Shown: piece after piece, positions 1 through 46,045 of the stretch
Numbering within the stretch: the first letter of the stretch is position 1
How the letters are laid out: each line of letters opens with the position of its first letter
Assembly: GCF_001904745.1 (NCBI RefSeq)
Contig: NZ_MRCD01000072.1
Coordinates: forward strand, 1-46,045
Length of the DNA: 46,045 nt
Source: Calothrix sp. HK-06
GTDB lineage: Bacteria; Cyanobacteriota; Cyanobacteriia; Cyanobacteriales; Nostocaceae
Reading direction: 5' to 3'
The notes under the pieces: generated by a model
What the model saw: only the letters and a program-made list of their open reading frames with translations
The model's database searches: none
Told to the model about the DNA's origin: nothing
Position numbers and translations under genes: made by a program

Positions 1-47
1 CATAATGATGCTGAAAAGCCTTGTTGTCAATAGGGTTTGAAATGCGC

Positions 48-590
48 TTACCCTGATTGAGCAACACAGGTATCAGCTAAGACTTGATAATCATCCAAAG
101 CTTCCACTGGTTCAGCGTACAGTAAAAGAGTTTGCCCCAAAGACGCTCTTATTTTTTCGGATGATAAAATATTTTTTGGATCAAGCTGACTTAGTTGAGT
201 AATATCGATAGTATCTTCAGAAAATAATGTCAAGTCTACTGCGTAAATATCATGTAGACGAAAAGGAGAGAGAAGCCCGTTTAAATCTACCCCACTGTGG
301 TTGATAAACCTAAAATCTATACTTTCTTCTCCAGAAGGTAGCAAAGTTAACTGCTGAGGGTAAATTTTCTCCTCGACAACTGGGTTGTATACACTGTTTT
401 CGTAGCAAATCAGCTTTTGCCGTAAATTCTGTAACTCCTCAATACCAAGGGTTTGACCAACATCCGCCAAACTTTCCCACAACTGTGATGCCTCTACCGT
501 TGCTTTTTCCGCTCCTTGGCTAATGTCATTACGCAGATGAAAGGCATAAAGAGTAAGGCTAGGATTGCGTATTCTCTGAGTTTGTGTCAT
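48..590 (-). CDS. Conserved hypothetical protein of the CHAT island
   Basis: This 180-residue protein has no signal peptide or membrane segment, and I recognise no catalytic motif. It starts with a basic stretch (MTQTQRIRNPSLTLYAFHLR), continues with a helical segment, then a mixed alpha/beta part, and ends with a short acidic region. Its start (ATG at 590) lies inside the 3' end of the upstream gene (overlap 559-590), which suggests translational coupling. It is the last gene of a minus-strand series that begins with the TPR-CHAT protein at 3854. From memory, proteins of this general look sit next to TPR-CHAT genes in filamentous cyanobacteria, so I infer a role as a partner or adaptor of that system. 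The function itself is unknown. Confidence 0.75.
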   Translation of the reverse strand: MTQTQRIRNPSLTLYAFHLRNDISQGAEKATVEASQLWESLADVGQTLGIEELQNLRQKLICYENSVYNPVVEEKIYPQQLTLLPSGEESIDFRFINHSGVDLNGLLSPFRLHDIYAVDLTLFSEDTIDITQLSQLDPKNILSSEKIRASLGQTLLLYAEPVEALDDYQVLADTCVAQSG

Positions 591-936
591 GTTTCTGACT
601 GTATGGCGCAGGTGGGTTTGAAGACGGAATACTTTGACGAACTATATTATCTATCATCTCCTTAACTTCTTTAGGATTAAGGCGAGTTTTGCGTCCTTGT
701 GGTCCTCGGTTATTAGCTGATTCTTCAATGGGTAATTCTAAAATTGCATTAAGGATATGGGGACGGTTATCGTACCATAGTGCAAGCTCATCAGAAATTA
801 TTTCAATATCATCTGGTAAGGTAGCAATTAATTCTCTTAAGGATACCCAGTCATCTTCAGTAAGAAGATTGTTTTGGGTTTTTGCTAAGTTGACAAAATC
901 TAAAATATTTTCTTCGTAAGGCGATAGTTCTGACAT
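559..936 (-). CDS. Small acidic hypothetical protein of the CHAT island
   Basis: The product has 125 residues. Residues 1-75 are acidic and predicted helical (MSELSPYEENILDFVNLAK...). They are followed by a basic linker (GPQGRKTRLNPKEVKEMIDN) and a Ser/Pro/Asn-rich, probably disordered tail. There is no signal peptide. The layout of a small helical domain plus linker resembles effector-associated adaptor domains of NTP-dependent conflict systems, but I cannot assign it to a named family. It lies 143 bp downstream of the TPR-CHAT gene and overlaps the next gene by 32 bp, so all three are probably co-transcribed. Confidence 0.7.
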   Translation of the reverse strand: MSELSPYEENILDFVNLAKTQNNLLTEDDWVSLRELIATLPDDIEIISDELALWYDNRPHILNAILELPIEESANNRGPQGRKTRLNPKEVKEMIDNIVRQSIPSSNPPAPYSQKHDTNSENTQS

Positions 937-1079
937 TTTTATACTTTATATTAACTAAACAGTAAAACTTTAACCTTGTAAAAACCCTCTAGAGAGAGTT
1001 AAATATTATCTTGGGAATTGAGAATGAGCATATTTTTATACTAGCAAATACTAATTGCCTCTTAAATCTCATTGGCTCA

Positions 1080-4042: not shown

Positions 4043-7000
4043 CTAGGAACTAATAGCACAAAATGCAGCCCAATAAAAAGGTGATTGAAAAAGTTTAGTA
4101 TCATCCGAAGTATTGCGAAACTGGCGGCGTAGCCGCATCTTTAAAGTTGAATTTAACTTGAACTCGTGTTGTGCTAACCACAACTCTAACTGTATTTTAG
4201 TTGCGTTACGCAGCCAGATTTGAGCTTGATTCAAGGCAAGAGCAACTATTAAACCAGCCTTAAGATTTTGATAAAATTTAATTATCAGTAAGGCGGTAGA
4301 TAAGTCGTTGACTGTCCATAGAGAACTGACAACGCTTTTAGCTCCAGCATAGAGAAATCCACTGGGTAAGCCAATGTATTCATCGCTTGTATTGTTGAAA
4401 TCAATCAAACCTGTTTCGCAGGCACAGAGGGTGACAAGACGGCATTGGTTCAGATCGAAATTGCGGTCAAATAAATTACCCAAAGTAAGGCATTTGCTTA
4501 CATCTAGTGCTTCTTCCGTATCCGCACCAGCCAGCACCAAGCAAGAATCTAGGGGTGAATTTGGGTTAAACAAACCGTGGCAGGAGAAGTGGAGAAAATT
4601 TGCTTGCTGGAGTTGTGGCGCCGCATAAGATAAAGCGTTTTTCGTAGCTTGGGCTTTTGGCAATACTTGATGGGAGGGAAACAGAGGCAAAATGCTATTT
4701 ACTTCTAAATCGGTAAACAATAAATCTTCCGTTGGGTTTTGAACGGCGAATATCGACTGAAAATCTTCGCGTTGTCGTTGTTGTGCCAATTGCAGTAGTT
4801 GGCAGCTAGGGGCATAACTTACCCCATTAGGAAATAATTCGAGGAGGCACGATTCTTTTACTGGCAAAGCGTGAAGCGGGAACAAGTGTAAGTAACGATG
4901 GGGAATCAGGATTAATTTGTTATAGTGTCTAGGTATTTGGTTTAATATTTCTTCAATATGTAGGATTTCTGCTAGCTTTTTCAGTCTTGGCTCTAGCTGC
5001 AAGTGCCATTCTTCTTTTTGCTGGTTGTAGTCCACTAAATATTCATTTATCCAATCAATCAGGGCTGTTAAATCTTCTGCTTGAGACTGCCAAACTGTAA
5101 CCTCTTCTCCTTCATTGCTAGGGACAGGAGTTTGAGGGTTCGGTTTGATAATAAAAGTGAGAATTTTACTGTTTGTGATGTACCATTCAATAATAGCAGT
5201 TTCGTTATCTAAAGTTGACAAAAATTGGTCAAACTTAAAACCAGAACCAACGGGTAAATATTTATCTTGTAGTTTTTGGTGTTGTTGGCGTAAATTTTGG
5301 AGATGCACCGCTATGGCTGTTGCATTTTCGGCTGTACCACTTTGGAGTTGATACTGTCCTGCGGCTAATTCGTCTCGCAGTTGTTCAAGTTGAATGATAA
5401 CATCTGAAGGAAAAATTGTTTTGCTATCTCGTTCTAGGATAAGTTCAACCAAGCTACGATTTTTGCTGCGTTCGACGTACTCTAGGGCTTCGCTAATTTT
5501 ATTTAGCTCTAAACAATTCTTGACCATTTGTTGATAAAGCTGATACCATCTTTCAGCGATTTTTTGTTTTACCTCCTGCCCGGAGTATATCTCGTTATGA
5601 AGGTTATCAACGCTTTCAATCGCTTTGTTAAATGCATGATAAGCAGTAGAAAAATTATTAGCATCTAGATGGGCATTACCTAAATAAAAATACATTGTTG
5701 CCCTTTCTTGGATTAATGCATCACGATTGTATATTTCCAAGGCATTATAACATGCAGTTATAGATTTATTCAAATTGTCTAAGCGTTCGCCTTGAATGCG
5801 GTCATAATAAGCAAGTGCAAGGTTATGTTGAGTAATTGCCCAATCTTGAGGAAATTCATCACGAGTATAAATTTGTAATACTTCTTGGTAAGCACTAATC
5901 GCCTTTTCCAAATTATCTGCTTCATCTCCTTCAATACGTAAAGTATATGCGAGCGCTAAGTTGGTTAGTGTTCCTGCCCAAGAATGAGGAAATGCATCAC
6001 GGGTATATACTTCCTGCAAAACTTGTTTGTAATTTTTGATTGCAAACTCTAAATTTTCTTTTCTATTTCCTTGAATACGCTTTTCGTAGATAACTCCTAA
6101 GTCATTTTGAACGTCAGCCCATGCAGTTGGAAATGCTTCGCGGGTATAAACTTCTAACGCTTGTTGGCAGGCAAAAATAGCTAATTCTAAGTTTTCCGCT
6201 CGATTTCCTCGAACACGATATAGGTAAGCAAGCGCCAGGTAGCGTTGGCTCGCTGCCCATGTTTGAGGATTTGCCTCACGAGTCCTTACTTGTAGCGCTT
6301 CTTTACAGGCAATTAATGATTTTTCTAAGTTTTCTGCTCGTTCGCCTAATATACGTAACCGATAACCATTTGCCAAATCGCTTTGGATTATAGCCCAAGT
6401 CCTGGCATCGTTTTCTGGGGTATAAATTTGTAAAGCTTGATGATAATTAAAAATTGCCTTGTCAATATTTTCTGCTTTACTTCCATAAATACGAGCAATA
6501 TAAATTTCTGCCAATGTATGTAGCGTTTCAGCCCAAGTTAATGCGTCTGACTTGCGATGTCTAATTTCTAAAGCCTCTTCGCAGGCAAGGATTGCTTTTT
6601 CCTGATTTTCTGCTCGATTCCCAAAAATTCGTCGCTTATAAGTGCCAGCTAAATCCGTTTTTAGTTTTGCCCAAGCCAATGGAAATGCTTCGCGGGTATA
6701 CACTTTAAGTGCTTCTTCATACATTTCTATTGCTAATTCTAAATTTTCTGCGGCGCCTCCCTTGAGACGACGAGAATAAGCGTTTGCCAAGTTACTCTTT
6801 ACCATAGCGCAGCTTTGGGGGTTTGTCTCAATGGTAAATACTTGCAGCGCATTTTTATATGCTGCGATCGCTAACTCTACATTTTCTTCTCTATTACCTT
6901 TAACACGGGCTAGATACGCTTGCCCCAAATTATTTTGTGTTTGTGCCCAATCATGAGATTTTAATTTGTAGGTTCTGGCTTTTAGCGCTTGCTGATATGC

Positions 7001-7690
7001 GTCGATCGCAAATTCTACATTTTCTGAGTGATTCCCTTGAATACGGTCTAAATAAGCAGTCCCTAAACTATTTTGTATGCTTGCCCATCTATCAGTATCT
7101 TTATTATAGCTTCCAATTAATAATGCTTGATTGAAGATATTTATTGCCTTTTCTAAATTACCTCCTTTATCACCTTTAATACGGTAAATATAAATATTAC
7201 CTAAAGATAGCTGTATATTTGCCCATAGTTCGGGTGATAATTCAGGAGTAATTAATTTCAACGTGTTCAAACAAATATCAATTGCCTTTTCTATATTATC
7301 TGCTCTTTCTCCTTTAATTCTTTCAAAATAAGCATCTGCCAAGCGCCACTGCACTGCACCCCAGGCATTCATATAATTCTCTTCAGCGTAGACAGTAGAT
7401 ACTACTTCATAACCCGCAATAGCAATTTCAATATTAATAGCTTTATTTCCAAGTGGAAACAATTGAATTAAGTTACTAAAACCGCTAATTCCATTAGCGG
7501 CAAGCGCATTTAGCTGGTGATGCTCTGCTATATAATGCAGAATCTTTATTAGACGCTCATCTATTTTATCTAAATTTTCCTCAAGTACTGGGTAAATTAC
7601 CTGATGATCCGCGTCGCTGTCCAAACTAAGCTGTAGCACCTGCATAAAAAAAGCTATTTGAGAATCGTTTTGCTGACGCTGTTCGTTCAT
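4043..7690 (-). CDS. Large TPR-CHAT protein with twelve 46-residue repeats
   Basis: This 1215-residue protein has an N-terminal helical region (~1-100) and then about twelve TPR-like units with a regular 46-residue period (residues ~110-680). Each unit has the form N-L-E-x-A-I ... Q-A-L-x-V-Y-T-R-E-A-F-P ... W-A-x-x-Q-N-x-L-x-x-A-Y-x-x-R-I-x-G-x-R. A linker and a C-terminal CHAT peptidase domain (~890-1215) follow. The predicted catalytic residues are His1038 (HFSCHG) and Cys1091 (LCACETG). The C-terminus FYWAAFCAISS matches that of the other CHAT protein. It lies 188 bp upstream of the 924-residue CHAT gene on the same strand, so the two are probably paralogous and may be co-regulated. Proteolytic activation on binding of a ligand by the repeats is inferred, not shown. 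Confidence 0.93.
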   Translation of the reverse strand: MNEQRQQNDSQIAFFMQVLQLSLDSDADHQVIYPVLEENLDKIDERLIKILHYIAEHHQLNALAANGISGFSNLIQLFPLGNKAINIEIAIAGYEVVSTVYAEENYMNAWGAVQWRLADAYFERIKGERADNIEKAIDICLNTLKLITPELSPELWANIQLSLGNIYIYRIKGDKGGNLEKAINIFNQALLIGSYNKDTDRWASIQNSLGTAYLDRIQGNHSENVEFAIDAYQQALKARTYKLKSHDWAQTQNNLGQAYLARVKGNREENVELAIAAYKNALQVFTIETNPQSCAMVKSNLANAYSRRLKGGAAENLELAIEMYEEALKVYTREAFPLAWAKLKTDLAGTYKRRIFGNRAENQEKAILACEEALEIRHRKSDALTWAETLHTLAEIYIARIYGSKAENIDKAIFNYHQALQIYTPENDARTWAIIQSDLANGYRLRILGERAENLEKSLIACKEALQVRTREANPQTWAASQRYLALAYLYRVRGNRAENLELAIFACQQALEVYTREAFPTAWADVQNDLGVIYEKRIQGNRKENLEFAIKNYKQVLQEVYTRDAFPHSWAGTLTNLALAYTLRIEGDEADNLEKAISAYQEVLQIYTRDEFPQDWAITQHNLALAYYDRIQGERLDNLNKSITACYNALEIYNRDALIQERATMYFYLGNAHLDANNFSTAYHAFNKAIESVDNLHNEIYSGQEVKQKIAERWYQLYQQMVKNCLELNKISEALEYVERSKNRSLVELILERDSKTIFPSDVIIQLEQLRDELAAGQYQLQSGTAENATAIAVHLQNLRQQHQKLQDKYLPVGSGFKFDQFLSTLDNETAIIEWYITNSKILTFIIKPNPQTPVPSNEGEEVTVWQSQAEDLTALIDWINEYLVDYNQQKEEWHLQLEPRLKKLAEILHIEEILNQIPRHYNKLILIPHRYLHLFPLHALPVKESCLLELFPNGVSYAPSCQLLQLAQQRQREDFQSIFAVQNPTEDLLFTDLEVNSILPLFPSHQVLPKAQATKNALSYAAPQLQQANFLHFSCHGLFNPNSPLDSCLVLAGADTEEALDVSKCLTLGNLFDRNFDLNQCRLVTLCACETGLIDFNNTSDEYIGLPSGFLYAGAKSVVSSLWTVNDLSTALLIIKFYQNLKAGLIVALALNQAQIWLRNATKIQLELWLAQHEFKLNSTLKMRLRRQFRNTSDDTKLFQSPFYWAAFCAISS

Positions 7691-7824
7691 GGGTATGGGC
7701 TAGTATATGAAAACACATTGATAAAGATATTCAAAACTATTAAGCATGATTACGGAAAATACTTGTAAGTCTTGTATCTTAACTGGTTGTCTATTCTATG
7801 AAAAACGCATAGTGCCATTAGATT

Positions 7825-7914
7825 TTAGCACCCGGCTGCACAGAAAGCCGCCCAATACATAGCCTTTGCAAAAGGTCTTTCTTCGGCATCAAACCAACTG
7901 CTCCATATGTTTTC
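7825..7914 (-). pseudogene. C-terminal relic of a third CHAT gene
   Basis: Reading the minus strand, an open frame ends at 7825 (TAA) and encodes a tail containing SSWFDAEERPFAK followed by MYWAAFCAAGC. The WAAFCA signature and the preceding R-P-F match the extreme C-termini of both adjacent CHAT proteins (RPFENPKHWAAFCAIGQ and FQSPFYWAAFCAISS). No start codon or CHAT catalytic motif precedes it. The frame runs straight into a dispersed repeat at 7916-7946. I interpret it as the remaining 3' end of a deleted CHAT gene. Nothing else was identified in the 360-bp gap up to the Uma2 gene. Confidence 0.75.
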
Positions 7915-7915
7915 A

Positions 7916-7946
7916 TGTTGGGTTCCGTTCCTCCACCCAACCTACA
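7916..7946. repeat. Dispersed GTTGGGTTCCGTTCCTC-type repeat, copy 1
   Basis: The left part TGTTGGGTTCCGTTCCTC pairs imperfectly with the right part ACCCAACCTACA, giving a small hairpin. A second, longer copy with the same left and right ends lies at 18207-18283. Confidence 0.75.
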
Positions 7947-8050
7947 AACAATTTTATTTATTCAGAGTAATAAAAGAGGGTTAGTCTACTTTTAGATGTT
8001 CATCCTGCCTCTATTGCTACAATCAAAACAAGCTTGGTAATAAACCTGTT

Positions 8051-8629
8051 ATGATAGCCATCCCGCAACAACCGCAAAAAATGACCATTGAGGAATATCT
8101 TGAATGGGAACTTCAGCAAGATATTCGGTACGAGTACGTTAACGGCGAAGTCTTTGCCATGACGGGTGGTACAATTCCCCATAATGATGTTGCTCTAAAT
8201 TTTTACACAGCTTTGTACCCTCATCTGCGTTCTAGAGGTTGTCGGGTAAATGTGTCAGACGTGAAAGTGCAAGTTAGTCCTACAGGTACTTATTACTATC
8301 CTGATGTTATTGTCAGTTGCGACGCTCAAGACCTGAACGCACGCAAATTTATTCAAAAGCCAAAATTAATTGCGGAAGTTCTCTCACCTGGTATAAGGGC
8401 GAAGGATAGGGGTGAGAAATTTATTAACTACTTGAAAATGCCTAGTTTGAAAGAGTATATATTAATTGACTCTGAAGAAATTTCTGTTGAACGTTACTGT
8501 CGGGGAGAAGGCAGGATGTGGCTGTACTATCCCTACACTGTTGGGGATATGGTCACTTTATCGAGCATTGAGTTTGAGTTTCCTATCGAAGTGGTGTATG
8601 AAGGTGTTGTGTTTGAGACAGAAGAGTAA
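8051..8629 (+). CDS. Uma2-family endonuclease (DUF820)
   Basis: The 192-residue protein has the Uma2/DUF820 layout. An N-terminal helix (MTIEEYLEWE) and Y-E-Y-V-N-G-E-V are followed by the PD-(D/E)XK-like core: PDVIVSC with its Asp near residue 97, then LIAEVLSP with its Glu near residue 113, and a lysine further on. The family is extremely abundant in cyanobacteria. It is predicted to be a nuclease, but its biological role is largely unsettled. It lies upstream of, and codirectional with, the STAND ATPase pair (91 bp before it) and divergent from the CHAT genes. ATG at 8051 is the natural start. A second Uma2 gene lies at 38513-39088. Confidence 0.9.
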   Translation: MIAIPQQPQKMTIEEYLEWELQQDIRYEYVNGEVFAMTGGTIPHNDVALNFYTALYPHLRSRGCRVNVSDVKVQVSPTGTYYYPDVIVSCDAQDLNARKFIQKPKLIAEVLSPGIRAKDRGEKFINYLKMPSLKEYILIDSEEISVERYCRGEGRMWLYYPYTVGDMVTLSSIEFEFPIEVVYEGVVFETEE

Positions 8630-8720
8630 AAACACTTAACTAACTTACTTAAATATATTTACGGAATTTGTAATGCGGTTTTTGTAGAAAATAAAGTTAA
8701 GCCGCGTTACGAGGTGCGTT

Positions 8721-35166: not shown

Positions 35167-35188
35167 CTTGACTATCGTACAAATTCTT

Positions 35189-36704: not shown

Positions 36705-36753
36705 ACACTTATTTTATTGTCTTATTCTTGTAGAGCTGTTTTATTCTTGTTGA

Positions 36754-36771: not shown

Positions 36772-36997
36772 CTTTAATTTGCTCATAACACAGAAAAAAT
36801 TTCCGAAAACCAAAAAATACACTTGAAGTTAATAAGATAGTAAATCCCAAATATAAAGAAACATTAAAATGATGAGAGAATCATCATAAATCTTTATTGC
36901 TGCAAAAGCTAAAAAATGATAGATTAGCAAAGCTAAAAGAATTTATCTGTAACAAGTACAAGTATAAATAATATAAAAAAGTTAAGTAGATAAAATT

Positions 36998-37243: not shown

Positions 37244-37244
37244 C

Positions 37245-38081
37245 TTAAGGAAGCAAAGGATGCATATGATGTGCTTTTGCAACGAGCATAGCAGTAGAAA
37301 GACGACCAGAAATAGCAACCAATAGATTTTTAACTGCACTTGAATCAAAAGCAGTAACGCAATTACTATACAAGCACATAACCCCAAGACAATCGCCCAT
37401 ATCCCCAATAATGGGAACTGTAATTAAAGATTTATACGGGAAACGGCGCCGTTTAGCTTTATCAAAAAAGATATATTCGGGGTTATCTGCTTGTAACTCT
37501 CCATTCTTTCTCGACAAATGCACAACATAACTTTTTTTATCTAGAAAAGTCAGCCCAGCAATACCACGTCTAGCATTAGAACCATTTCCAATATAAAAGC
37601 GTGCTTTATCAGGACTTTCATTCGGATATTCAAGGAAAAACCAAGTAGTGAGATAATCAGGGTCAGTAGTATCAGGAGCATATACAGCAATACCACAACC
37701 ATCTAAAAGTTGGAGAAATTCAAGTGTTTGCTCTAAAAATTCATCGAAAAAACGTTGTAAAGCTAGACTAGCATCAGGCGCCTCGCATAACTTAGGCAGC
37801 AAATACCATAGAGTTTCATCAAGAGAATGAAGTTTTACAGATATTTGATGTGCGGCATGATAACGCTGTATAACCAACAGACAAGGAAGAACTACAACAA
37901 GCCCACATAATAGCGCAGCCCACAGAGGAACTTCTATAGATATGAGAATAGGTAAAACAGGTTTAAGAGCCTCATCAGCTCTATTTCCAATAATGCCCTG
38001 AAAAGCAAAAGCAATTAGAGTACCTATCGGTGCGATAGATATTTTTAACCAAATTGGAATTTTGGGTAGATTTAATGCCAT
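37245..38081 (-). CDS. Membrane-anchored GAF-domain protein
   Basis: The 278-residue protein has two N-terminal transmembrane helices (~11-30 and ~46-72), a short coiled segment, then a GAF-type sensor domain (~95-270). The domain contains L-D-G-C-G-I-A-V-Y, R-R-G-I-A-G-L-T-F, S-L-I-T-V-P-I and C-L-G-V-M-C-L-Y-S, a standard GAF beta-sheet pattern. No kinase, cyclase or DNA-binding output domain is attached, so it presumably signals through a partner. The bound ligand is unknown. No bilin-type Cys could be assigned. The 38082-38512 gap holds AT-rich DNA and one repeat. Confidence 0.8.
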   Translation of the reverse strand: MALNLPKIPIWLKISIAPIGTLIAFAFQGIIGNRADEALKPVLPILISIEVPLWAALLCGLVVVLPCLLVIQRYHAAHQISVKLHSLDETLWYLLPKLCEAPDASLALQRFFDEFLEQTLEFLQLLDGCGIAVYAPDTTDPDYLTTWFFLEYPNESPDKARFYIGNGSNARRGIAGLTFLDKKSYVVHLSRKNGELQADNPEYIFFDKAKRRRFPYKSLITVPIIGDMGDCLGVMCLYSNCVTAFDSSAVKNLLVAISGRLSTAMLVAKAHHMHPLLP

Positions 38082-38488
38082 AACGACCTGTCATAGTTGG
38101 CAGCGTGACATAATACCATCGATATAGGTATCAATACTATACTAACAACCTCTAGATAAATTTACCTGTACATATATTAATGTTGTTACCATATATGTTA
38201 TGTGACACAAGAGCGAAAACTACTGTTCAATTGATTTCTTATCTAATACTTATGTTCAATGAATTATTATTAACGGTATTTACACGTAGATTACCTTAAC
38301 AATAATAATCTTAAAAGCGACGCAAATAATGTTTATAACTCAATAACTACTTAGTAATAATGAATATTCTATACAATATAAGTCTATTACAGTTATTGTT
38401 AAGGAGTATTGTGTTGAAATCTTGACATGGAAGTTAAAAACTAGTGCAGGTTGAGGCGCCTTCCGACTTAAAATTACTATACCGATAA

Positions 38489-38516
38489 GTAGAGATGCCA
38501 TTAATCACGTCTCTAC
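38489..38516. repeat. TGTAGAGACG-type palindrome, copy 4
   Basis: GTAGAGATG and CGTCTCTAC form an imperfect stem. The TAG stop of the Uma2 gene (38513-38515) is inside the right arm. Confidence 0.75.
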
Positions 38517-39088
38517 CATACAAATTGCATATCTAGAACAAACCCTGGTAGCACGTCTTCTCCTGATAAAGTCGTAGGAGCATCTAATATTTCAACTTGT
38601 TGTCCTAAACGGTAAATTTCTACACGACGACTTTTTCTATCTATTAACCAACCTAATCTAACTTCGGCGCCCATATATTCGCGCATTTTGGCTTGTGTTT
38701 CGCTCAAGCTATCAGACGGAGACATTAATTCCAATACAAAGTCAGGAGCAATAGGGGGAAATTTCTCTCGTTGTGCGTCGGTAAGTGCATTCCACCTTTC
38801 TAATTGTATCCATGAGACATCTGGGGAACGGTCAGGACCATTAGGAAGTTTAAAACAAGTTGAAGAGTCAAATACTTCTCCTAATTTGGTTTGACGGTTC
38901 CAAATGACAAAATCAGCAATAACAGATGCATTACGTTTTCCTGTTTCTCCTCCGGTTGGTGGCATTATTACCAGTTTCCCCCATTGATTACGCTCAAATT
39001 TGATATCAGGATTATCCTGACACAGTTGGTAAAATTGGTCGTCAGTAAGCTTGACTACACTGTTAAAGTCAATAGTAATGGCAGTCAT
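38513..39088 (-). CDS. Uma2-family endonuclease (DUF820), second copy
   Basis: The 191-residue protein starts at ATG 39088 (MTAITIDFNS); the longer frame from 39178 would run into the neighbouring protease gene and is rejected. Uma2 features are F-E-R-N-Q-W-G-K-L-V-I-M-P-P-T-G-G, PDVSWIQLERW with its Asp, FVLELMSPSD with its Glu, and G-W-L-I-D-R-K-S-R-R with a lysine/arginine cluster. It is clearly divergent from the Uma2 at 8051-8629. A predicted PD-(D/E)XK nuclease of unknown role. Its stop codon comes from a dispersed palindrome. Confidence 0.9.
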   Translation of the reverse strand: MTAITIDFNSVVKLTDDQFYQLCQDNPDIKFERNQWGKLVIMPPTGGETGKRNASVIADFVIWNRQTKLGEVFDSSTCFKLPNGPDRSPDVSWIQLERWNALTDAQREKFPPIAPDFVLELMSPSDSLSETQAKMREYMGAEVRLGWLIDRKSRRVEIYRLGQQVEILDAPTTLSGEDVLPGFVLDMQFVW

Positions 39089-39152
39089 GGCATCTATATT
39101 ACATGTATGGCGCCTCCATTTTAACGTAGATAAGTTTTGCTTAGACGCTACT

Positions 39153-39629
39153 TCAGGCGCCGAGTTTGCGAATAGCAAAATTCATCATACTTATTTGCTT
39201 TTCATGAAACGAAGGGGGCATCAAGCTATGAACTGTATGGTCGAGTCCATCGTGCATCACATCGGTTGTTAGTGCAGAGTGGTCTAAACCTAAAGTATGC
39301 CCAATTTCATGAGCAATAGCGTTAGCAATTAAGTTAGATAATTGATTAGCATCTAAATTGGCATGATAAGAAGCATAAAAAACTTGGTCAATACGAATAA
39401 TCGCACGGTCTGTAACCACTCCTTGTTGAAAAGTAGCTATACCAAGATAGTCAACAGGTTGGTCGTCAGCAAATATATAGACGTGAGTAAAATCTTCTCC
39501 CCATTGTTTAGGGTCGGGTGGGTCTGAAATCAAAAATACATTTACGCTTCTAAATGCACCATATACTTTAGAAAAAGCATCAAACAGTATATTACTGACT
39601 GCTTCTCTATTTTTTTGAGCAACATCCAT
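39153..39629 (-). CDS. Matrixin-like zinc metalloprotease, possibly truncated by an IS
   Basis: The 158-residue protein carries the metzincin zinc motif HEIGHTLGLDH, with the following M-H-D-G and S-L-M-P-P region supplying the Met-turn. A-I-I-R-I-D-Q-V-F-Y precedes it. This is essentially only a catalytic domain with no signal peptide. In frame upstream of ATG 39629 the coding pattern continues (RRCIWVDISG) up to the IS boundary at 39674. On the other side of the IS the frame extends a few codons to a stop. The IS therefore may have cut off the natural N-terminus, leaving an ORF that may be inactive or mislocalised. Confidence 0.78.
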   Translation of the reverse strand: MDVAQKNREAVSNILFDAFSKVYGAFRSVNVFLISDPPDPKQWGEDFTHVYIFADDQPVDYLGIATFQQGVVTDRAIIRIDQVFYASYHANLDANQLSNLIANAIAHEIGHTLGLDHSALTTDVMHDGLDHTVHSLMPPSFHEKQISMMNFAIRKLGA

Positions 39630-39664
39630 TCCAGATATATCTACCCAAATACAACGACGAAATT

Positions 39665-39673
39665 CACTATCCC
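39665..39673. repeat. 9-bp target-site duplication, left copy
   Basis: CACTATCCC here is repeated exactly at 41085-41093, flanking the IS4-type element. Confidence 0.88.
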
Positions 39674-41084
39674 CTGACTGCCTGACAGATTTCTGTAGAA
39701 GGCAGTGAAATCAACGTCTGCACTCCAAGGAATAGATGCGAGAAAAGCATATCCCATAACTTATTTCTTGACGAGCTTTATTGGAAGCAAAACAAGGTTC
39801 AGGGTCTTTAGGTAACAAGGGAATTGGGGTTAGCAATTGCCGCCCTTTATGAATAACACCTTTAAGCCAATTAATACCAATTTTTAGATAGCTTAAACCA
39901 CGATTCGCTCTTAGGGTCAACACTTGAGCGTAACCCCGCAACTTGTACAGCCATGCCTTGTGCTGTACTATAAAGCAAAGTTAAGGCTGCAATTAAATAC
40001 AAACGTTCACTCATATTTTGCATTTCTAAGGCGAGAATCTTCGCTCTTCAAACGCACCTGATTTACTGTCAAGAAATAGTTCCTCGCGCGCGTTACCTCA
40101 AGGCATATTCATGCAGCGTTTTTAAAGTCGGAGGTTCCGAAGTGATAACAGCCCAATGCTCGGATACACCTTCTGGATCAGCAACTACCAGGTGGAGAGC
40201 AAATCACACCGTCTTGCCATAATCCAACATTATGGCGAAATCTTGCCACCGGGGAGTATCCCCGTGGCAAAGTTTCGCATAAAAAGCTGCTTCCCCTTTT
40301 TTGGGATAAATTGAAGATGCTTCTATCGGATGGCGCCTAATTCCATGTAACTTTGTGTCACTAGTTATACGTATACAATAATACCAATTACTTGCTTGCA
40401 GCCAACTCAAAAAATCATGATTGGCAAAGCCTCGATCTGCAAGCATCATCACATCCGGGTGGTGGCGCAGTAACCATCTGGCTTTACGGAGCATTGGTTC
40501 GTATTCTTTAAATGCGACTGTTGCACTGCTATGTTCTAATACACGCCACAGTAATGGAATTGCGCGACCACAACAGACTACTGAGATATGAATCAGCGCA
40601 AAGTTGGCGGTGTCGGCTTCCGTCCCGCCAAACTTTGTAAGAGATACAAAAACGATTCCACAACACAGTAGTATCAATAGCTAAATATAGTCGATGGTTC
40701 TGCCAATCTTTTAATGCTGCTATAGAAGAGCGGTAAATACAATTTTTCAACACAAACCCTAGTATTTTCAAGAAATCTACGCCACCTGCGTTGATAACTT
40801 TGGGCTTGTTCTGCATTACTTTGTACATAGGGTTCCCACGCGCTCAAACTTAGTTGCCCACTACATATTAATCCATTAATCATCCAAGCTAGAGTTTTTA
40901 GGTGCCGCAAGTCACAGTAAGTACAGTATTGACGTAGATATCCAAATATCTGACTATATAGTTGGGTCGAGTTTGACATGATGCACTTGGTAGTAGTGTG
41001 GTAACTTTACCATCTCATGCTTCTTGACCCTTTTATTAAATTCTTGATTTTACAAGGTTTTTCAGACTTCTGTCAGCCAGTCAG
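39674..41084 (-). mobile_element. IS4-family insertion sequence with intact ends
   Basis: This 1411-bp element is bounded by terminal inverted repeats CTGACTGCCTGACAG... (39674 on) and its counterpart ending ...CTGTCAGCCAGTCAG (to 41084), about 19 of 22 bases matching. The 9-bp direct repeat CACTATCCC lies outside both ends. Size, end structure and duplication length agree with IS4-family elements. Its transposase gene is broken, so it cannot move on its own but might be mobilised in trans. It inserted just upstream of, or within, the 5' end of the matrixin-like gene. Confidence 0.92.
39711..40979 (-). pseudogene. IS4-type transposase pseudogene
   Basis: Transposase sequence is spread over at least three frames. 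From ATG 40979 comes MSNSTQLYSQIFGYLRQYC with H-L-K-T-L-A-W-M-I-N-G-L. A second frame holds the first catalytic Asp (LYLAIDTTVLWNRF). A third holds the second Asp (VMMLADRGFANHDFLSWL). A stop follows G-K-T-V, then more homologous sequence (HLVVADPEGVSEHWAVIT) and a Y-(2)-R-(3)-E-like region (EELFLDSKSG). The C-terminal tail is in the frame ending at 39711. There are several frameshifts and stops, so the gene is non-functional. Confidence 0.88.
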
Positions 41085-41093
41085 CACTATCCC
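41085..41093. repeat. 9-bp target-site duplication, right copy
   Basis: CACTATCCC, identical to 39665-39673. Confidence 0.88.
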
Positions 41094-41325
41094 TTATATA
41101 ACAATTAGATAGAATAAGCAGTGATGTTCACTCTAGAAGATTTTGCTTATTTAATCTACATTGAAGTTAAATATATGACTCTGAAACACCATAGAGTAAC
41201 ATACTTAATATACTGTTTATGTTAATTTGTAGAAAATAATAGCGGAACCAGTAAATACACTTAAATATTGAGAGTCGGTATTCTTTTAATGTAGAAAAAT
41301 ATTTATAGTTTATCTAAGATTATTG

Positions 41326-41500
41326 ATACTTGCTTATGATAGGCTTTGAGATGTTTGGTTAGATAGGCGCCTTTGGTATATTTTGACATCTTCTCCTTGC
41401 TTGCGAAACTGCTGATTAATCTTTTCATCTGTAGCAAAAATATCCGCATGTGCAGCACGGTCACCTGTAGCATATTTGATTAGCGTAACTAAATTTACTC
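41326..41500 (-). pseudogene. Possible gene fragment without a start
   Basis: A minus-strand frame of about 55 codons between two stops encodes protein-like sequence (YATGDRAAHADIFATDEKI then NQQFRKQGEDVKIYQRRL) without an ATG, GTG or TTG start in a sensible place. It is probably a leftover of a gene of unknown identity. The rest of the gene-free stretch 41094-41666 is AT-rich and shows only two GGCGCC sites. Confidence 0.4.
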
Positions 41501-41666
41501 AAAATCAACAGCATTACTCAGTCCATTTTAATGGACTTTGGCTATTAGCATAAGACTTGCAGTCTTATGCGGAATATCAACTCAGCAACCCCTAACTAGT
41601 AATTAATATTACAGCATTTTTGATTGAACAATAGCACAGGCGCCGAACCTGTGCTAACACGTTTAA

Positions 41667-43073
41667 TTAAACACTGTGAACACCTTCAGGTGAAAGTTGA
41701 TTAAAGGCGCCGATAGTGCGAGGAAGATGTATAGCAAGCGCCAGTATAATAGTTAGCATGTACGATACAAGACCAAGCCATAATACATGATTATTATGAG
41801 AATACCAAGCGGTGAATGCTAGGGGAAGAAAACCTAAGAAGAAAGCAATTAAAACAGCGTTACGTAAAGTGGCGCCTTCTTTCAAGCCAATAAAATATCC
41901 TTCTAACATAAAAGCAATAGATGTAAACCCTAATAAAGGCAGTAACCAAATAGTGTAACTATTAATGTGTTGGCTGACTTCAGTGTGGTTTGTTAATATT
42001 CCAAATATTTTATCAGGAAATATTACCGATACAATTGCAATTCCAAAAGCTATTAATAAGCTAGTTAAGATTGAAACGGTCAGTAGTGGTAGTAGCTTTT
42101 GTGTATCGCCTTTACCTTTGAATTTACCAGTCAAAGTTTGAGCCGTCATTCCTACACCTTGAATGGTAAACTGGCTCAATAAAGCGATTTGGAGAATTAA
42201 ACCGTTTTCCGCTAAAATAGTTGTTCCTATTGCTGCACTTATATTAGTAAAAATGGCATAAGCGGAAATCAAAGCCAAGAAACGAATCAAAATATTACTT
42301 TTGAGTACGACTGTATCTTTAAGCGCAGCCCAATTAAAAACTTCTTTTACAGCATTTGGTAATATTTGCCATTGAACAGTAAAGCATAAGCAAATTAAAG
42401 CAGTTATCAACGCTAAATATTGACTCGCTGCTGTCGCAAGTCCGGCGCCCATACTTTCCCAACCGAACTTATTAATCATTAAATAATCTAGGGCAACATT
42501 CGAGCCATTACCAATAATAGACATATACAACACAATGCCATTCATCTCACGTCCGAGAAACCAACCAATGAGAACAAAATTTAGTAAAACAGCAGGCGCC
42601 CCCCAAATGCGGGCACAAAAATAATCAACTCCCGACGCTTCAATTTCTGGAGAGCCGCTCAAAATTGCAAAACCCAACTTTTGTAAAGGATATTGCAGTA
42701 ATACAATAAGCACACCTATTGCCAACGCCACCAAACCGCTTCGCAAAAGAGCAAGTAACACACCCTTCGAGTCATCAAGTCCTACAGCTTGAGCAGTTAG
42801 TGCGTTAGTGCTAGTACGGAGAAACTTCAACACCCGGTAAAGATAGTCAAACAGAATAGTAGCCAGAACCACTCCAGCCAAGTGACGAATATCAGCCAAG
42901 TGTCCCAAAAAGGCAATATCCACAATACCTGCTAGCGGCACCATCATATTCGACAATGCGCTAACACTGGCAAGCCGATAAAAACGAGGCAAAAAATTAT
43001 ACTGTACTGGGAGCGTAAACGCCATATCATCAAAAGCCTCAAAAATAGGACTTAGTTTAAATTTCTTTAACAT
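41667..43073 (-). CDS. MATE-family efflux transporter (DinF-like)
   Basis: The 468-residue protein has about 12 transmembrane helices. MATE signatures include LPRFYRLASVSALSNMMVPLAG and D-I-A-F-L-G-H-L near the N-terminus, and an equivalent second-half repeat G-V-G-M-T-A-Q-T-L-T-G. The DinF branch is favoured by G-W-F-L-G-R-E and L-D-Y-L-M-I-N-K-F-G-W. MATE proteins export cationic drugs or metabolites using Na+ or H+ gradients; the substrate is unknown. ATG 43073 gives a slightly long N-terminus, and a later in-frame ATG (MAFTLPVQYN) is an alternative. It lies 78 bp downstream of the ATP-grasp gene on the same strand, perhaps as an exporter of that enzyme's product (inference). Confidence 0.9.
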   Translation of the reverse strand: MLKKFKLSPIFEAFDDMAFTLPVQYNFLPRFYRLASVSALSNMMVPLAGIVDIAFLGHLADIRHLAGVVLATILFDYLYRVLKFLRTSTNALTAQAVGLDDSKGVLLALLRSGLVALAIGVLIVLLQYPLQKLGFAILSGSPEIEASGVDYFCARIWGAPAVLLNFVLIGWFLGREMNGIVLYMSIIGNGSNVALDYLMINKFGWESMGAGLATAASQYLALITALICLCFTVQWQILPNAVKEVFNWAALKDTVVLKSNILIRFLALISAYAIFTNISAAIGTTILAENGLILQIALLSQFTIQGVGMTAQTLTGKFKGKGDTQKLLPLLTVSILTSLLIAFGIAIVSVIFPDKIFGILTNHTEVSQHINSYTIWLLPLLGFTSIAFMLEGYFIGLKEGATLRNAVLIAFFLGFLPLAFTAWYSHNNHVLWLGLVSYMLTIILALAIHLPRTIGAFNQLSPEGVHSV

Positions 43074-43151
43074 TAAACCCTTTTCGCCTAACTTTCTAGC
43101 AACTGCTGAACTTTTGATCCCCAGCTTGAAGTTAACACTGTTAAATGTAAT

Positions 43152-44159
43152 TTAAAATACATTTTGACTACATATGCTACTTTTGAGCAGATTAGCACGT
43201 TGCAGATAAAAATGAAGAAGTCCTGTGTAGATACGATCCTTTGAGGGTAGTTGATATTTCTTACTAGGGTGACCATCTGTTGAACCCCAAATAACTGCAA
43301 AAGGATTTGGTTCCCAAACTATTAAGCGTCCTTCAGAGTCATAGCTGTAATCAAATGCCATGAAATCAAATTCTAATGCCTTGCGCGCTTTCTGTAAAAT
43401 GTGATGATTGGGGTCATTTCCACTAAAATAGGTGATATCCTCAGCTATAATTGATTCGTTAGTAATACGATTCTTATTATCGCGTACTTCCCAAGATGTA
43501 GAAACCATCAATGAACTTGGAATACCTTCATCTCCCATAGCAAAGTAACGATATTTACGATATAAACCATCTTCTGATTTTGTATCAATAAATTCTACTG
43601 CTATTGGATTAATCAAACTTTCAAATGGGACATTGTGTAAATCATTAGGATGATGAATAAAAAATGTTTTACTACCATGCACGTCATCTTCTCGAATGAA
43701 AAAGGGTGTTGATAGTCCTCCTAATGTTTTTTTAAATTGTTCTAGGTCAGTAATTGGAATTGTCTTAGCAGTTCGGATACCGACACTACGAATAGTTTTT
43801 GCGGCAATAGACTTAATTGAATTTGAAAGTTTATCTACGGGATTAATAATAGGGATATTATATTCTTGACATTTCAATTCTATCTGTTTGGCTTGTTCGT
43901 AAACGTCCGGAAACCTTTCTTTGAGAGGGTCTTGTAACCAAGGTATGAACAAAGCATAACGATTCCAGTTTTCAATTTTACAAGGGAGATAATAAACTTC
44001 AAATAATTTTGATGCTTGCGGATAATTTTGGCTTACCCAGTAAAGAAAATAATCGTTGTATGTTGATTGATGATTCGATTGCCGAACAACTAAAATACGT
44101 TTTGGGTAACGAATATTATTGATATATTCTCGTATTATTTCATTAATTTGATTGTACAT
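43152..44159 (-). CDS. ATP-grasp domain protein
   Basis: The 335-residue protein starts at ATG 44159 (MYNQINEIIR); a TTG at 44171 is in frame but unlikely. An N-terminal pre-ATP-grasp region (~1-110) is followed by an ATP-grasp fold. P-F-F-I-R-E-D-D-V-H-G-S-K-T serves as the nucleotide-binding lysine/loop segment, V-E-F-I-D-T as the central strand, F-D-F-M-A-F-D-Y-S-Y-D and W-E-P-N-P-F-A-V as the Mg-binding Asp/Glu-x-Asn pair. This is a carboxylate-amine ligase of unknown substrate. No GGCGCC occurs in it, unlike its neighbours. The MATE exporter follows 78 bp downstream, so a ligase-plus-exporter pair for a small metabolite is conceivable. Confidence 0.8.
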   Translation of the reverse strand: MYNQINEIIREYINNIRYPKRILVVRQSNHQSTYNDYFLYWVSQNYPQASKLFEVYYLPCKIENWNRYALFIPWLQDPLKERFPDVYEQAKQIELKCQEYNIPIINPVDKLSNSIKSIAAKTIRSVGIRTAKTIPITDLEQFKKTLGGLSTPFFIREDDVHGSKTFFIHHPNDLHNVPFESLINPIAVEFIDTKSEDGLYRKYRYFAMGDEGIPSSLMVSTSWEVRDNKNRITNESIIAEDITYFSGNDPNHHILQKARKALEFDFMAFDYSYDSEGRLIVWEPNPFAVIWGSTDGHPSKKYQLPSKDRIYTGLLHFYLQRANLLKSSICSQNVF

Positions 44160-44267
44160 TTTGTCTGGCAATAGTATAATTTAATACTTTTATCCTAATA
44201 TAAAAATTATAGTGAGTGCTTGAAGAAACTATAAATTTTAGGATAAATTTAAGTTGTTATAAATTTC

Positions 44268-45719
44268 TTAGCAGCGTCTTAGTTGTGTCATTGTTACAAC
44301 CATTTCATCGACAGCTTGGCGTAAAACTCTGGCAGGTTGTTCGGTTTGATTTACTATTACGCTGAAGACTAAGGGTTCGTAGTTGGGTGTAGTTATATAG
44401 CCAGATAAGGAAACAACACCTCCTACTGTTCCTGTTTTTGCTACAACTATACCTTCTGCGGGTGTACCGCGAAATCTGTTTTTAAGGGTGCCTGTTCTGC
44501 CTGCTATAGGTAATGACGCGCGGAATATTGATGCAGTCGGCGCCTTTGCCATTCCCTGTAATACTTGTACTAATGCTTCGGGACTAATTAAGTTTTTACG
44601 TGATAAACCGGAACCATCGACAATAAAGTAACTAGTTGGGTTAACTCGAAGTTGCGTTAAAGTTGTTTTCAGAACTTCTAACCCTAAAGCTGATGTACTT
44701 TGTCCTGGTTTTCGAGTTTGCCTCACAGCTAATGCATTCAATAAAGACTCTGCATATAAATTATTACTGTCTACATTTGTTTTTGCTACTAGTTCGCCTA
44801 AAGTTGGTGACTGAATAGCTGCAACTTCGGTAGCTGTGGCGCCAAGAGCTTCTACTGCTGTTTCACCTAAACTTATTCCTTCCGAAGCTAAAGCTGTACG
44901 AAACCGACGCAAAAAGAAGTAATTAGGGTCAATGACTGGTAAAGTTACAGCAAATGGACTAGCATTCGCAGCAAGTTGTCCCTGAATTTTTAGCACATTT
45001 CCTGATAAGTCGCGCGTTACACTCAAGTCTGTTGCTTGGTTGTTTGCTGCTGTTACTGACAGGTTAAGTAGTCGCCATACCCTTGCTTCATTTGGGTCTG
45101 CCCAGTTAATTTGTAGTGGTCTGCCTACAGCTTGCGGTGCCAACCTAATAGTAAATGCATTTTCGTTCACCATAAAACTACCAACAGGGGCGCCGTAGTC
45201 TGACTGTATATCTTCCCATTGCCAGCTAGGTACAACAACATCACCTTGAACATAACTATCATCGGCGATTAACTTATTAATTCTAGTAATACCTTTAGCT
45301 TTAAGTTGTTTTGCCAACGCTGTTAACTGTGCATCAGTAATACTTGGGTCGCCTCTACCCACAACTCGCAACACTCCATTCGGTTCTTGGTAAACTGTAG
45401 TGCGAATTCTAAAATTGGCGCCTAACTGTTGCAAAGCCGCTGCCGTAGTTAGTAACTTAGTATTAGAAGCCGGAGTAAAGTATTTATTCGCATCGCGGTT
45501 ATACAGCGTTTGCCCATTCAAAGTTTGCACCAATAAACCCCACCGCACCCGACTAAACAACGGACGGTTGATAACAGTATCAAGATTAGATGCAAGCTGT
45601 GCTGGACAAATAGTTCTAGGAGTTGGGGTTGGAGTTGGTGTTTGCGCTTGGGCAAGTGGAATAGTATTTAATTGGGCGCCGAGTAATAATAGAAAGACAG
45701 TACGAACACAAGAAGCCAT
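44268..45719 (-). CDS. dacB: D-alanyl-D-alanine carboxypeptidase/endopeptidase (PBP4, peptidase S13)
   Basis: The 483-residue periplasmic enzyme starts at ATG 45719 (GGAAG eight bases upstream) and has a signal peptide (MASCVRTVFLLLLGAQL ... A-Q-A). The longer frame from 45788 would spoil the signal. A short Thr-Pro repeat linker follows. Penicillin-binding motifs are SxxK in PASNTKLLTTAAAL (Ser85-Lys88), SNN in VDSNNLYAESLL and KTG in VAKTGTVGGVVSL. The large insert between SxxK and SNN is typical of S13 enzymes. It trims pentapeptide stems or cross-links of peptidoglycan. No operon partner is visible. Confidence 0.95.
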   Translation of the reverse strand: MASCVRTVFLLLLGAQLNTIPLAQAQTPTPTPTPRTICPAQLASNLDTVINRPLFSRVRWGLLVQTLNGQTLYNRDANKYFTPASNTKLLTTAAALQQLGANFRIRTTVYQEPNGVLRVVGRGDPSITDAQLTALAKQLKAKGITRINKLIADDSYVQGDVVVPSWQWEDIQSDYGAPVGSFMVNENAFTIRLAPQAVGRPLQINWADPNEARVWRLLNLSVTAANNQATDLSVTRDLSGNVLKIQGQLAANASPFAVTLPVIDPNYFFLRRFRTALASEGISLGETAVEALGATATEVAAIQSPTLGELVAKTNVDSNNLYAESLLNALAVRQTRKPGQSTSALGLEVLKTTLTQLRVNPTSYFIVDGSGLSRKNLISPEALVQVLQGMAKAPTASIFRASLPIAGRTGTLKNRFRGTPAEGIVVAKTGTVGGVVSLSGYITTPNYEPLVFSVIVNQTEQPARVLRQAVDEMVVTMTQLRRC

Positions 45720-45910
45720 AAAAATTACTTCCGAATAAAATATATTTAACCAACAGTAAAACAACGCAGACGCACAAAGTCGCCCCAATGTTTCTTTTGG
45801 GACATTGAAACGGCGCCGGAAGTCTACTGGTTCTATTTATCACAAAAACCCCTAAATGAGAATCTTTTCGTGTATTCCCAAAACATTCTTGTACAAAATT
45901 GGGTAGGTAG

Positions 45911-45969
45911 GGTGCGTTACTGCCTGAAAAAATTAAAACATTTATGAAAATCTAATGCAGTAACGCACC
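45911..45969. repeat. GGTGCGTTACTGC inverted repeat
   Basis: GGTGCGTTACTGC (45911-45923) and GCAGTAACGCACC (45957-45969) are perfect 13-bp inverted arms around a 33-nt AT-rich loop. It has the look of another dispersed palindromic element upstream of the PBP4 gene. Nothing else was recognised to the window end. Confidence 0.75.
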
Positions 45970-46045
45970 ATCAACAATTTATAAACATCATACCCGCTTT
46001 GCCAATAAAAATTGCGGTACTGGTCACCTTTGGTTTTCACCCAAG

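What the first reader, a model, noticed from the sequence alone, without database searches (positions are those of the whole stretch)
1..46045. GGCGCC is massively over-represented and appears to replace HIP1
By eye I find about 65 copies of GGCGCC, roughly one per 700 bp, in genes of all kinds and in spacers. At ~39% GC the chance expectation is only two or three in 46 kb. The usual cyanobacterial HIP1 octamer GCGATCGC was seen once (6864-6871). Highly iterated palindromes in cyanobacteria are thought to be linked to DNA methyltransferases, so this strain may have a different methyltransferase specificity. My count is manual and may be off by a few.
Basis: partly seen in the sequence, partly recalled or inferred. 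Interest (0 to 1): 0.72.

Follow-up and report, generated by a model that had tools for sequence, protein, structure and literature searches.

The report
GGCGCC replaces HIP1 across a genus
In this group of cyanobacteria a six-letter DNA palindrome, GGCGCC, occurs about every 650 letters where their relatives carry a different palindrome called HIP1; the swap was already known from one strain, and here it holds for the whole sequenced genus, with the copies kept in place for a long time, which makes its link to a DNA-methylating enzyme testable.

Summary
In detail: 68 GGCGCC in 46,045 bp (dinucleotide shuffles: mean 4.1) and one HIP1. Genome-wide the counts are 15,449 GGCGCC and 88 HIP1. The phenomenon is published for one strain, Calothrix PCC 7103 (Elhai 2015, PMC4390886), as an alternate HIP. 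Added here: (1) it holds for all 7 genus genomes held (1,150-1,711 per Mb) and none of 210 other family genomes (at most 111 per Mb); HIP1 is low in the same 7. So it is an old clade trait, not sporadic. (2) All 7 carry a GRCGYC-type C5 methyltransferase without a detectable HindVP-type nuclease, and all 7 lack a C5 enzyme, probably CGATCG-specific, found in 206 of 210 others. (3) Sites are conserved in place beyond codon constraint, and only inside the six bases. (4) Losses are mostly C3 to T, consistent with GG(m5C)GCC, the base that M.BsaHI methylates (PMC2413257). Methylation was not measured. Whether biased repair or selection keeps the sites is unresolved.

The parts
4617..45817 (.). 68 dispersed GGCGCC palindromes; starts: 4617, 6752, 9132, 9520, 10549, 11603, 11739, 13164, 13582, 14202, 15451, 15547, 15875, 16046, 16505, 16734, 16963, 17762, 18676, 18761, 19584, 19719, 21043, 21345, 21925, 23100, 23129, 24166, 25055, 25433, 25554, 25752, 25839, 26296, 26803, 27182, 27819, 29135, 29744, 29810, 29931, 30661, 31115, 31359, 32355, 33414, 34667, 34731, 36143, 37445, 37777, 38455, 38666, 39109, 39156, 40332, 41366, 41639, 41706, 41871, 42444, 42595, 44539, 44838, 45189, 45417, 45675, 45812
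   Evidence: 100 shuffles mean 4.14, largest 10
41706..45680 (.). stretch with 9 sites (41706, 41871, 42444, 42595, 44539, 44838, 45189, 45417, 45675) of which 7 are identical in all six other genus genomes and the other two (45189, 45417) differ in one genome each, by the C3-to-T change or its complement
   Evidence: pairwise blastn alignments to G064, G060, G061, G065, G062, G063
13582..13587 (.). example of a decaying site: GGCGCC here and in G060 and G061, GGCACC in G064, GGTGCC in G065 (G062 and G063 not aligned here)
6864..6871 (.). the only HIP1 octamer GCGATCGC in the window
   Evidence: not more than chance

Best explanation
GGCGCC is the genus's alternate 'highly iterated palindrome'. 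Shown here: the swap from HIP1 is shared by all 7 genus genomes held, the sites stay at the same positions, and the constraint is confined to the six bases. Inferred: an orphan C5 methyltransferase of the BsaHI/HindV (GRCGYC) type, kept without its restriction enzyme, methylates the third base (GG-m5C-GCC) on both strands. When the ancestor lost the DmtC-like (CGATCG) C5 enzyme and most of its HIP1, a methylation-dependent, word-specific maintenance process that formerly acted on HIP1 came to act on GGCGCC. The most likely process is biased repair of mismatches at the word towards the strand carrying G-m5C, a local version of Elhai's G-meC model. Other GRCGYC sites, which lack G-m5C on one or both strands, were not kept and have decayed, in part towards TpG/CpA forms.
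For: Genus-wide swap: 7 of 7 at 1,150-1,711 GGCGCC/Mb against at most 111/Mb in 210 others; HIP1 3.6-22.6/Mb against a median of 803/Mb. Methyltransferase group A in 7 of 7, the seven unbroken copies 79-99% identical; in six genomes it sits in one syntenic place with no nuclease beside it, and in the seventh the gene there is split over contig ends with the same two flanking genes. Specificity inferred three ways: GRCGYC ranks 1 of 152 degenerate palindromic hexamers by depletion in 33 non-cyanobacterial loci carrying relatives (25 observed, 223.4 expected); the neighbour in 53 of 73 non-genus loci is one nuclease family, Pfam RE_HindVP in the two scanned; and the TI motif with upstream R and G/A matches the M.BsaHI description in 12 of 12 (PMC2413257). 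RE_HindVP in 0 of 7 genus genomes, 43 of 210 others (42 over Pfam's cut-off, several partial). DmtC-like enzyme at E<=1e-100 in 0 of 7, 206 of 210 others. In-place conservation: GGCGCC 75/94 against other G/C-only hexamers 40/104 in the 86%-identical G062 (Fisher 5e-9); GCC third bases in sites 36/40, outside 64/125 (p=5e-6). Third-base divergence 0.031 inside the word against 0.099 one to three bases away in G060. Losses: 44 of 65 single-base ones are C3>T or its complement. GRCGYC retention follows the G-meC rule: GGCGCC 21x, GGCGTC 0.30x, GACGTC 0.11x; decay forms GATGTC 1.47x, GATGCC 1.76x, GGTGTC 1.08x.
Against: No methylation data. The swap is one clade, so the gene associations rest on one event. 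In the 40 cyanobacterial non-genus loci GRCGYC is only 4th of 152 (31 observed, 172.4 expected), as many palindromes are avoided there. 16 non-genus genomes have the methyltransferase without a nuclease hit (13 with an unbroken gene, 3 partial or broken: G097, G105, G124) and show no GGCGCC excess (at most 43/Mb), so the enzyme is not sufficient; all 16 have the DmtC-like enzyme. An m4C-type CGATCG enzyme was not excluded in the genus: Elhai describes a broken one in PCC 7103, and the PF01555 enzyme found in 7 of 7 has untested specificity. Loss of the DmtC-like enzyme alone need not remove HIP1: the four others without it keep it (G032, G083, G096, G180). C3>T changes at sites (5.2% of CpGs) are no faster than at other CpGs (7.7%): they dominate only because other changes are rarer (0.4% against 5.7%). 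Gains are few (at most 19 'only here' columns against 75 losses), so gain was not seen at work. In the window's own genome the only unbroken group A gene (L003) has A where the 11 other aligned members have G in a near-invariant GN.
Confidence: 0.55

Rival explanations
1. Purifying selection on function: each methylated GGCGCC serves a process such as strand discrimination in mismatch repair, replication control or recombination, and mutants of single sites are slightly harmful.
For: In-place conservation at synonymous third bases and confinement to the word; variants GGTGCC are young (of 41 in G061, 26 are GGCGCC in both other genomes); conservation also in spacers (25/30 with G060 against 0.68 for other hexamers; 6/10 with G062 against 0.35). 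Sites whose loss would open a larger gap are lost somewhat less often (0.35, 0.31, 0.23, 0.23 across span classes; p=0.07).
Against: Needs effective selection on some 7,000-20,000 mostly redundant sites per genome; spacing is close to random and long gaps are not avoided; the redundancy trend is not significant.
Confidence: 0.3
2. Elhai's original model: long-range G-meC-directed mismatch repair drives GGCGCC up to a density set-point of about one per kb, and the sites themselves have no function.
For: Density one per 647 bp; a methyltransferase of the inferred right specificity; retention order GGCGCC > GGCGTC > GACGTC follows the G-meC rule; the methylated base required by the model is the one M.BsaHI methylates (PMC2413257).
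Against: Third-base divergence from G060 outside the word lies between 0.074 and 0.105 at all distances from 1 bp to 3 kb, with no rise away from sites up to 1 kb, and drops to 0.031 only inside the word (with sites this dense a gradient may be hard to see). Gaps are near-exponential with no lack of long ones (3 over 5 kb, 0.3 expected). The paper's premise that alternate HIPs occur sporadically, not in clades, fails for this one.
Confidence: 0.1
3. Compositional, codon or repeat artefact: GGCGCC is common because of Gly-Ala or Ala-Pro codon pairs, or because it rides in a repeat family.
For: Sites are denser in coding DNA (1.80 against 1.23 per kb) and favour the Gly-Ala frame (192 of 367).
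Against: All three frames and spacers are used; flanking bases show only mild bias; 21x over an order-2 Markov expectation; at most 111 per Mb in 210 family relatives.
Confidence: 0.02
4. DNA-uptake or chi-like recombination signal, with methylation incidental.
For: Dispersed, abundant word conserved in place, as uptake signals can be (general knowledge).
Against: A fully symmetric palindrome that coincides with an inferred methyltransferase target; the joint loss of HIP1 and of the DmtC-like enzyme would be unexplained.
Confidence: 0.03

Closest known systems
GGCGCC alternate HIP of Calothrix PCC 7103 (Elhai 2015, PMC4390886; abstract, sections 2.4, 2.5, 2.6, 3.3, 3.4 (part 1 of 2), 3.5 and passages read)
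   Same: Same word, same lack of HIP1, same inferred class of methyltransferase (GrCGyC), same loss of a CGATCG enzyme; that strain is G061 here (contig lengths)
   Different: There one genome plus 19 kb of another strain, taken as sporadic; here 7 of 7 genus genomes held, sites conserved in place, no HindVP-type nuclease found in any, and a decay spectrum pointing at C3
HIP1 (GCGATCGC)
   Same: Dispersed GC-rich palindrome at about one per kb in genes and spacers, tied to orphan methyltransferases (as described in PMC4390886)
   Different: Different word, contains no GATC; different methyltransferase
BsaHI / HgiDI / HindVP restriction-modification systems (GRCGYC; PMC2413257, sections 5 and 6 and passages read)
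   Same: C5 methyltransferase with the TI motif and upstream R plus G/A; relatives outside the genus mostly sit beside a HindVP-type nuclease. A table passage of PMC8565308 lists GRCGYC as an m5C motif of Haemophilus influenzae Rd, the HindVP strain
   Different: In the genus the nuclease was not found and one of the words covered by GRCGYC is enriched instead of avoided
Alternate HIPs rCCGGy (Oscillatoria PCC 10802) and GCsGC (Cyanothece PCC 7822), as described in PMC4390886
   Same: Low HIP1 with another methyltransferase target over-represented
   Different: Described there in single genomes; not examined here

Membership tests
Alternate HIP (Elhai 2015) | GC-rich palindrome grossly over-represented, dispersed over genes and spacers | tested here: met
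Alternate HIP (Elhai 2015) | HIP1 at low frequency in the same genome | tested here: met
   88 copies in 9.99 Mb; 7 of 7 genus genomes at 3.6-22.6/Mb; 0.6 to 4 times the reversed control
Alternate HIP (Elhai 2015) | a resident methyltransferase able to methylate the word | tested here: inconclusive
   group A gene in 7 of 7; specificity inferred, not assayed
Alternate HIP (Elhai 2015) | the word is methylated in the cell | not testable with these tools
   no reads; only an indirect C3>T spectrum
HIP1 | word GCGATCGC with core CGATCG | tested here: not met
   GCGATCGC 3 and CGATCG 10 in 446 kb
BsaHI/HindV-type GRCGYC C5 methyltransferase | C5-methylase domain, PCQ and ENV motifs | tested here: met
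   PF00145 hits, TIGR00675 for L035 and L003, A1 alignment
BsaHI/HindV-type GRCGYC C5 methyltransferase | TI in the target-recognition domain, conserved R upstream and G or A two residues after it | tested here: met
   12 of 12 aligned members against the text of PMC2413257; M.BsaHI itself was not aligned
BsaHI/HindV-type GRCGYC C5 methyltransferase | GRCGYC avoided in other hosts of the family | tested here: met
   56 observed, 395.9 expected in 73 non-genus loci; rank 1 of 152 degenerate words in the 33 non-cyanobacterial loci, rank 4 of 152 in the 40 cyanobacterial ones
BsaHI/HindV-type GRCGYC C5 methyltransferase | methylates the central (third) cytosine | tested here: inconclusive
   indirect: 44 of 65 single-base losses are C3>T or complement; shown for M.BsaHI only (PMC2413257)
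GRCGYC restriction-modification system in the genus | HindVP-type nuclease present | tested here: not met
   PF09519 in 0 of 7 genus genomes; none among the ORFs of L001-L106

The most novel reading that the evidence does not exclude
A methylation-dependent, word-specific maintenance system (biased repair confined to about six base pairs, unlike long-patch mismatch repair) keeps 7,000-20,000 GGCGCC words per genome at fixed positions through the divergence of a genus. It can be re-targeted from HIP1 to a new word when one orphan methyltransferase is lost and another is freed from its nuclease.
Probability: 0.3. Interest if true: 0.8.

Novelty: new member of a known kind. Interest (0 to 1): 0.52.

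Why it matters
HIP1 is a long-standing puzzle of cyanobacterial genomes (general knowledge). A clade in which the word has been swapped wholesale, with one methyltransferase kept and another lost, is a natural experiment: it says the word can change while the phenomenon stays, and which genes change with it. It also counts against the published premise that alternate HIPs are sporadic, and makes three models (long-range repair, local biased repair, selection) separable by a methylome, a gene knock-out and population data.

Tried and rejected
Sequence repeat or codon artefact: rejected by flanks, frames, spacers and relatives. A GCGC-specific enzyme: GCGC is only mildly depleted in the loci of the enzyme's relatives (2,262 observed, 2,651.9 expected, 0.85), GRCGYC strongly (0.14). 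The other C5 enzyme present in 7 of 7 (about 370 aa, L004): orthologues about 70% identical also occur in G012, G003 and G194, which have no GGCGCC excess, so it does not track the swap. The PF01555 cluster present in 7 of 7 (L047 etc.) was not followed further. Density set-point: spacing is close to exponential, KS p=0.13-0.51, with a deficit below 50 bp (38 seen, 82 expected). Redundancy test: weak trend, p=0.07. A second replacement word in the low-HIP1 genome G194: none seen in 60 kb.

Rows dropped and choices made: pairwise alignments kept only blastn segments above set identity and length. Coding frames come from mechanical ORFs of 120 aa or more. The losses are called by majority among three genomes, not rooted; of its 278 columns 184 have the site in all three, 75 are losses (10 of them multi-base) and 19 are 'only here'. 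The Fisher test of C3 against C5 transitions (44 v 5 in sites, 37 v 32 in control, p=2e-5) compares majority-called losses with an unrooted pairwise control. The 1e-100 line was drawn after seeing the table. The split into 33 non-cyanobacterial and 40 cyanobacterial loci is mine, from the record titles. 20 of the 73 non-genus loci show no nuclease neighbour; in some the contig end is near. The 'DmtC-like, CGATCG' label of A2 is inferred, not tested: it is one of only two C5 enzymes found in HIP1-rich G012, and the other one has orthologues in the genus. Not read, only recalled: a 2018 paper (Xu, Lawrence and Durand) arguing for selection on HIP1; one search found it not held. Where I speak of what is in print, it rests only on the searches in the open-licence library. 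PMC8565308 and PMC5920184 were seen only as single passages.
Full report
THE OBSERVATION. The window holds 68 GGCGCC and one HIP1 octamer. Dinucleotide shuffles give means of 4.14 and 0.26. 60 of the 68 lie in ORFs and 8 in spacers. The whole genome (9.99 Mb, 243 contigs) holds 15,449 GGCGCC and 6 of the reversed control, and 88 HIP1. In 446 kb of own genome GGCGCC tops 2,080 hexamers at 21x an order-2 expectation.

WHAT IS ALREADY KNOWN. Elhai (2015, PMC4390886; abstract, named sections and passages read) described GGCGCC as an alternate HIP in Calothrix PCC 7103 and in 19 kb of strain D253. That paper notes two GrCGyC methyltransferases, a truncated CGATCG enzyme and extreme GATC depletion in PCC 7103. 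It says exceptional HIPs occur 'sporadically, not in clades', and offers a model of mismatch repair directed by G-meC. A search for GGCGCC with Calothrix found that paper and one that is unrelated by its title.

A CLADE TRAIT. Counts over 217 genomes of the family (56 genera) separate cleanly. All 7 genomes of the genus have 1,150-1,711 GGCGCC per Mb; the other 210 have at most 111. HIP1 is 3.6-22.6 per Mb in the 7 (0.6 to 4 times the reversed control), with a median of 803 in the rest; one other genome (G182, 9.4 per Mb, 88% complete) is as low. The members differ by up to 18% in aligned DNA, so the swap is not recent.

THE METHYLTRANSFERASES. PF00145 hits in the 7 genomes were clustered at 50% identity. 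A cluster whose unbroken members have 302-335 aa occurs in all 7, and its group A (79-99% identical) is the conserved part. In six genomes group A sits between a RuBisCO-like gene and a GHL10/SLH gene. In the window's own genome that copy is split over the ends of contigs C29 and C207, and an unbroken second copy lies on C60 (L003). L003 has A for G in a near-invariant GN pair, so its activity is uncertain. The best sequence match in the PDB is M.HaeIII, with M.HhaI further down. A scan of genome contigs reported 409 relatives, of which the best 80 were kept. In the 73 kept loci outside the genus GRCGYC is depleted to 0.14. In the 33 non-cyanobacterial ones it ranks first of 152 degenerate palindromic hexamers (0.11; the next is 0.25); in the 40 cyanobacterial ones, where many palindromes are avoided, it ranks fourth (0.18). 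In 53 of the 73 the neighbour is a nuclease of one family; the two examples scanned are Pfam RE_HindVP. Of 45 full-length ones 33 carry WGKNQF, 44 the DKAF motif and 38 SPERRFD, the signatures listed for BsaHI relatives in PMC2413257. [quoted passage not shown] Elhai had written that the base was known for no enzyme of this specificity.

WHAT DISTINGUISHES THE GENUS. The enzyme alone is not enough. 55 of 210 non-genus genomes have a hit (E<=1e-60, some partial); 39 of these also have a RE_HindVP hit, 16 do not. All 55 have low GGCGCC (median 1.1 per Mb, at most 43; the 155 without have a median of 5.0; p=0.0009) and at least 82 HIP1 per Mb. RE_HindVP is found in 0 of 7 genus genomes. The C5 enzymes of HIP1-rich G012 are only two; one has orthologues in the genus, the other (A2, probably the CGATCG enzyme) has none above 45% identity. 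An A2 profile at E<=1e-100 finds it in 206 of 210 others and 0 of 7 (the weaker hits near 1e-60 in four genus genomes are other C5 enzymes by my reading). No genome outside the genus combines methyltransferase present, nuclease absent and A2 absent: of the four without A2, two have both methyltransferase and nuclease hits (G032, G096) and two have neither (G083, G180). This is one clade, so it is one event, not a statistical association. An m4C-type CGATCG enzyme in the genus was not excluded. A D12-class (Dam-like) hit in an open frame of 351-355 aa occurs in each of the 7.

SITES STAY PUT. A 260 kb stretch of G061 was aligned to relatives. GGCGCC is conserved in place at 230/257 (G060), 207/226 (G065), 52/56 (G000), 50/59 (G064), 75/94 (G062) and 18/27 (G063). 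Other G/C-only hexamers give 0.68, 0.66, 0.47, 0.48, 0.38 and 0.41; Fisher p is 0.047 for G063 and 7.4e-6 or less for the rest. At third bases of GGC, GCC, CGC and GCG codons whose first two bases are conserved, sites exceed the same codons elsewhere in all 12 comparisons (four codons, three genomes), 9 of them with p<0.05. Divergence falls only inside the word; outside it the third-base values for G060 stay between 0.074 and 0.105 out to 3 kb (only about 200 third positions beyond 1 kb). Spacing is near-exponential. A test of whether isolated sites are kept better gave p=0.07.

HOW SITES ARE LOST. Among three genomes 278 columns hold at least one site, 184 in all three; 75 are losses in one genome (44 in PCC 7103, 18, 13) and 19 occur in one genome only. 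Of 65 single-base losses 44 are C3>T or its complement, 5 hit C5 and 10 hit C6 by transition. At other xGCGCx words inner and outer C transitions are about equal, 37 and 32. GGTGCC (with its complement) is the only over-represented one-off form of the word (1.52x). These fit m5C at C3. Against a simple hot-spot reading, the C3 transition rate (5.2%) is below that of other CpGs (7.7%); the contrast comes from suppression of all other changes (0.4% against 5.7%).

READING. The facts shown are the swap, its clade distribution, the gene pattern, and word-confined conservation. Methylation at C3, the enzyme's exact specificity, and the process that keeps the sites are inferred. I favour local biased repair linked to G-m5C over per-site selection, without a strong preference; both predict the conservation seen. 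The long-range version of the published model explains the word choice but not the confinement, the random spacing or the clade persistence.

Noticed in passing
G194 (genus g49), L218-L220: HIP1 is low (50 per Mb) although the DmtC-like enzyme is present; GATC is 4 against 152 expected in 60 kb and no replacement palindrome is visible.
   Followed up: partly
own genome, L221-L240 and window: Many palindromes are almost absent in 446 kb: TTCGAA 0 of 162 expected, GCATGC 0 of 69, CCATGG 0 of 61, GTGCAC 0 of 58, TGCGCA 1 of 136, CCGCGG 1 of 29 (6 in the whole genome).
   Followed up: no
own genome, 446 kb sample: CGCGCG is 2.6x over-represented (161 against 62), the second palindromic hexamer after GGCGCC.
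   Followed up: no
G061 (PCC 7103), 260 kb reference: PCC 7103 shows 44 site losses against 18 and 13 in its two relatives, more than its branch length explains (0.193 of sites, 0.146 expected for any hexamer); its sites may be decaying.
   Followed up: partly
genus g47 (G184-G191): HIP1 density is low for the family (82-384 per Mb) without GGCGCC, perhaps an intermediate state.
   Followed up: no
G000 contigs C29:1-317 and C207:1-290: The syntenic group A methyltransferase gene is split over two contig ends with its middle missing; break in the cell or in the assembly cannot be told.
   Followed up: partly
window 1-4616: The first 4.6 kb of the window has no GGCGCC, the longest site-free stretch in it, covering ORFs at 48-936 and 1080-3854 (the latter reads by eye like a TPR/CHAT protein, not tested).
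   Followed up: no
window 40204-40979: Two adjacent short ORFs that read by eye like pieces of a broken transposase (not tested).
   Followed up: no
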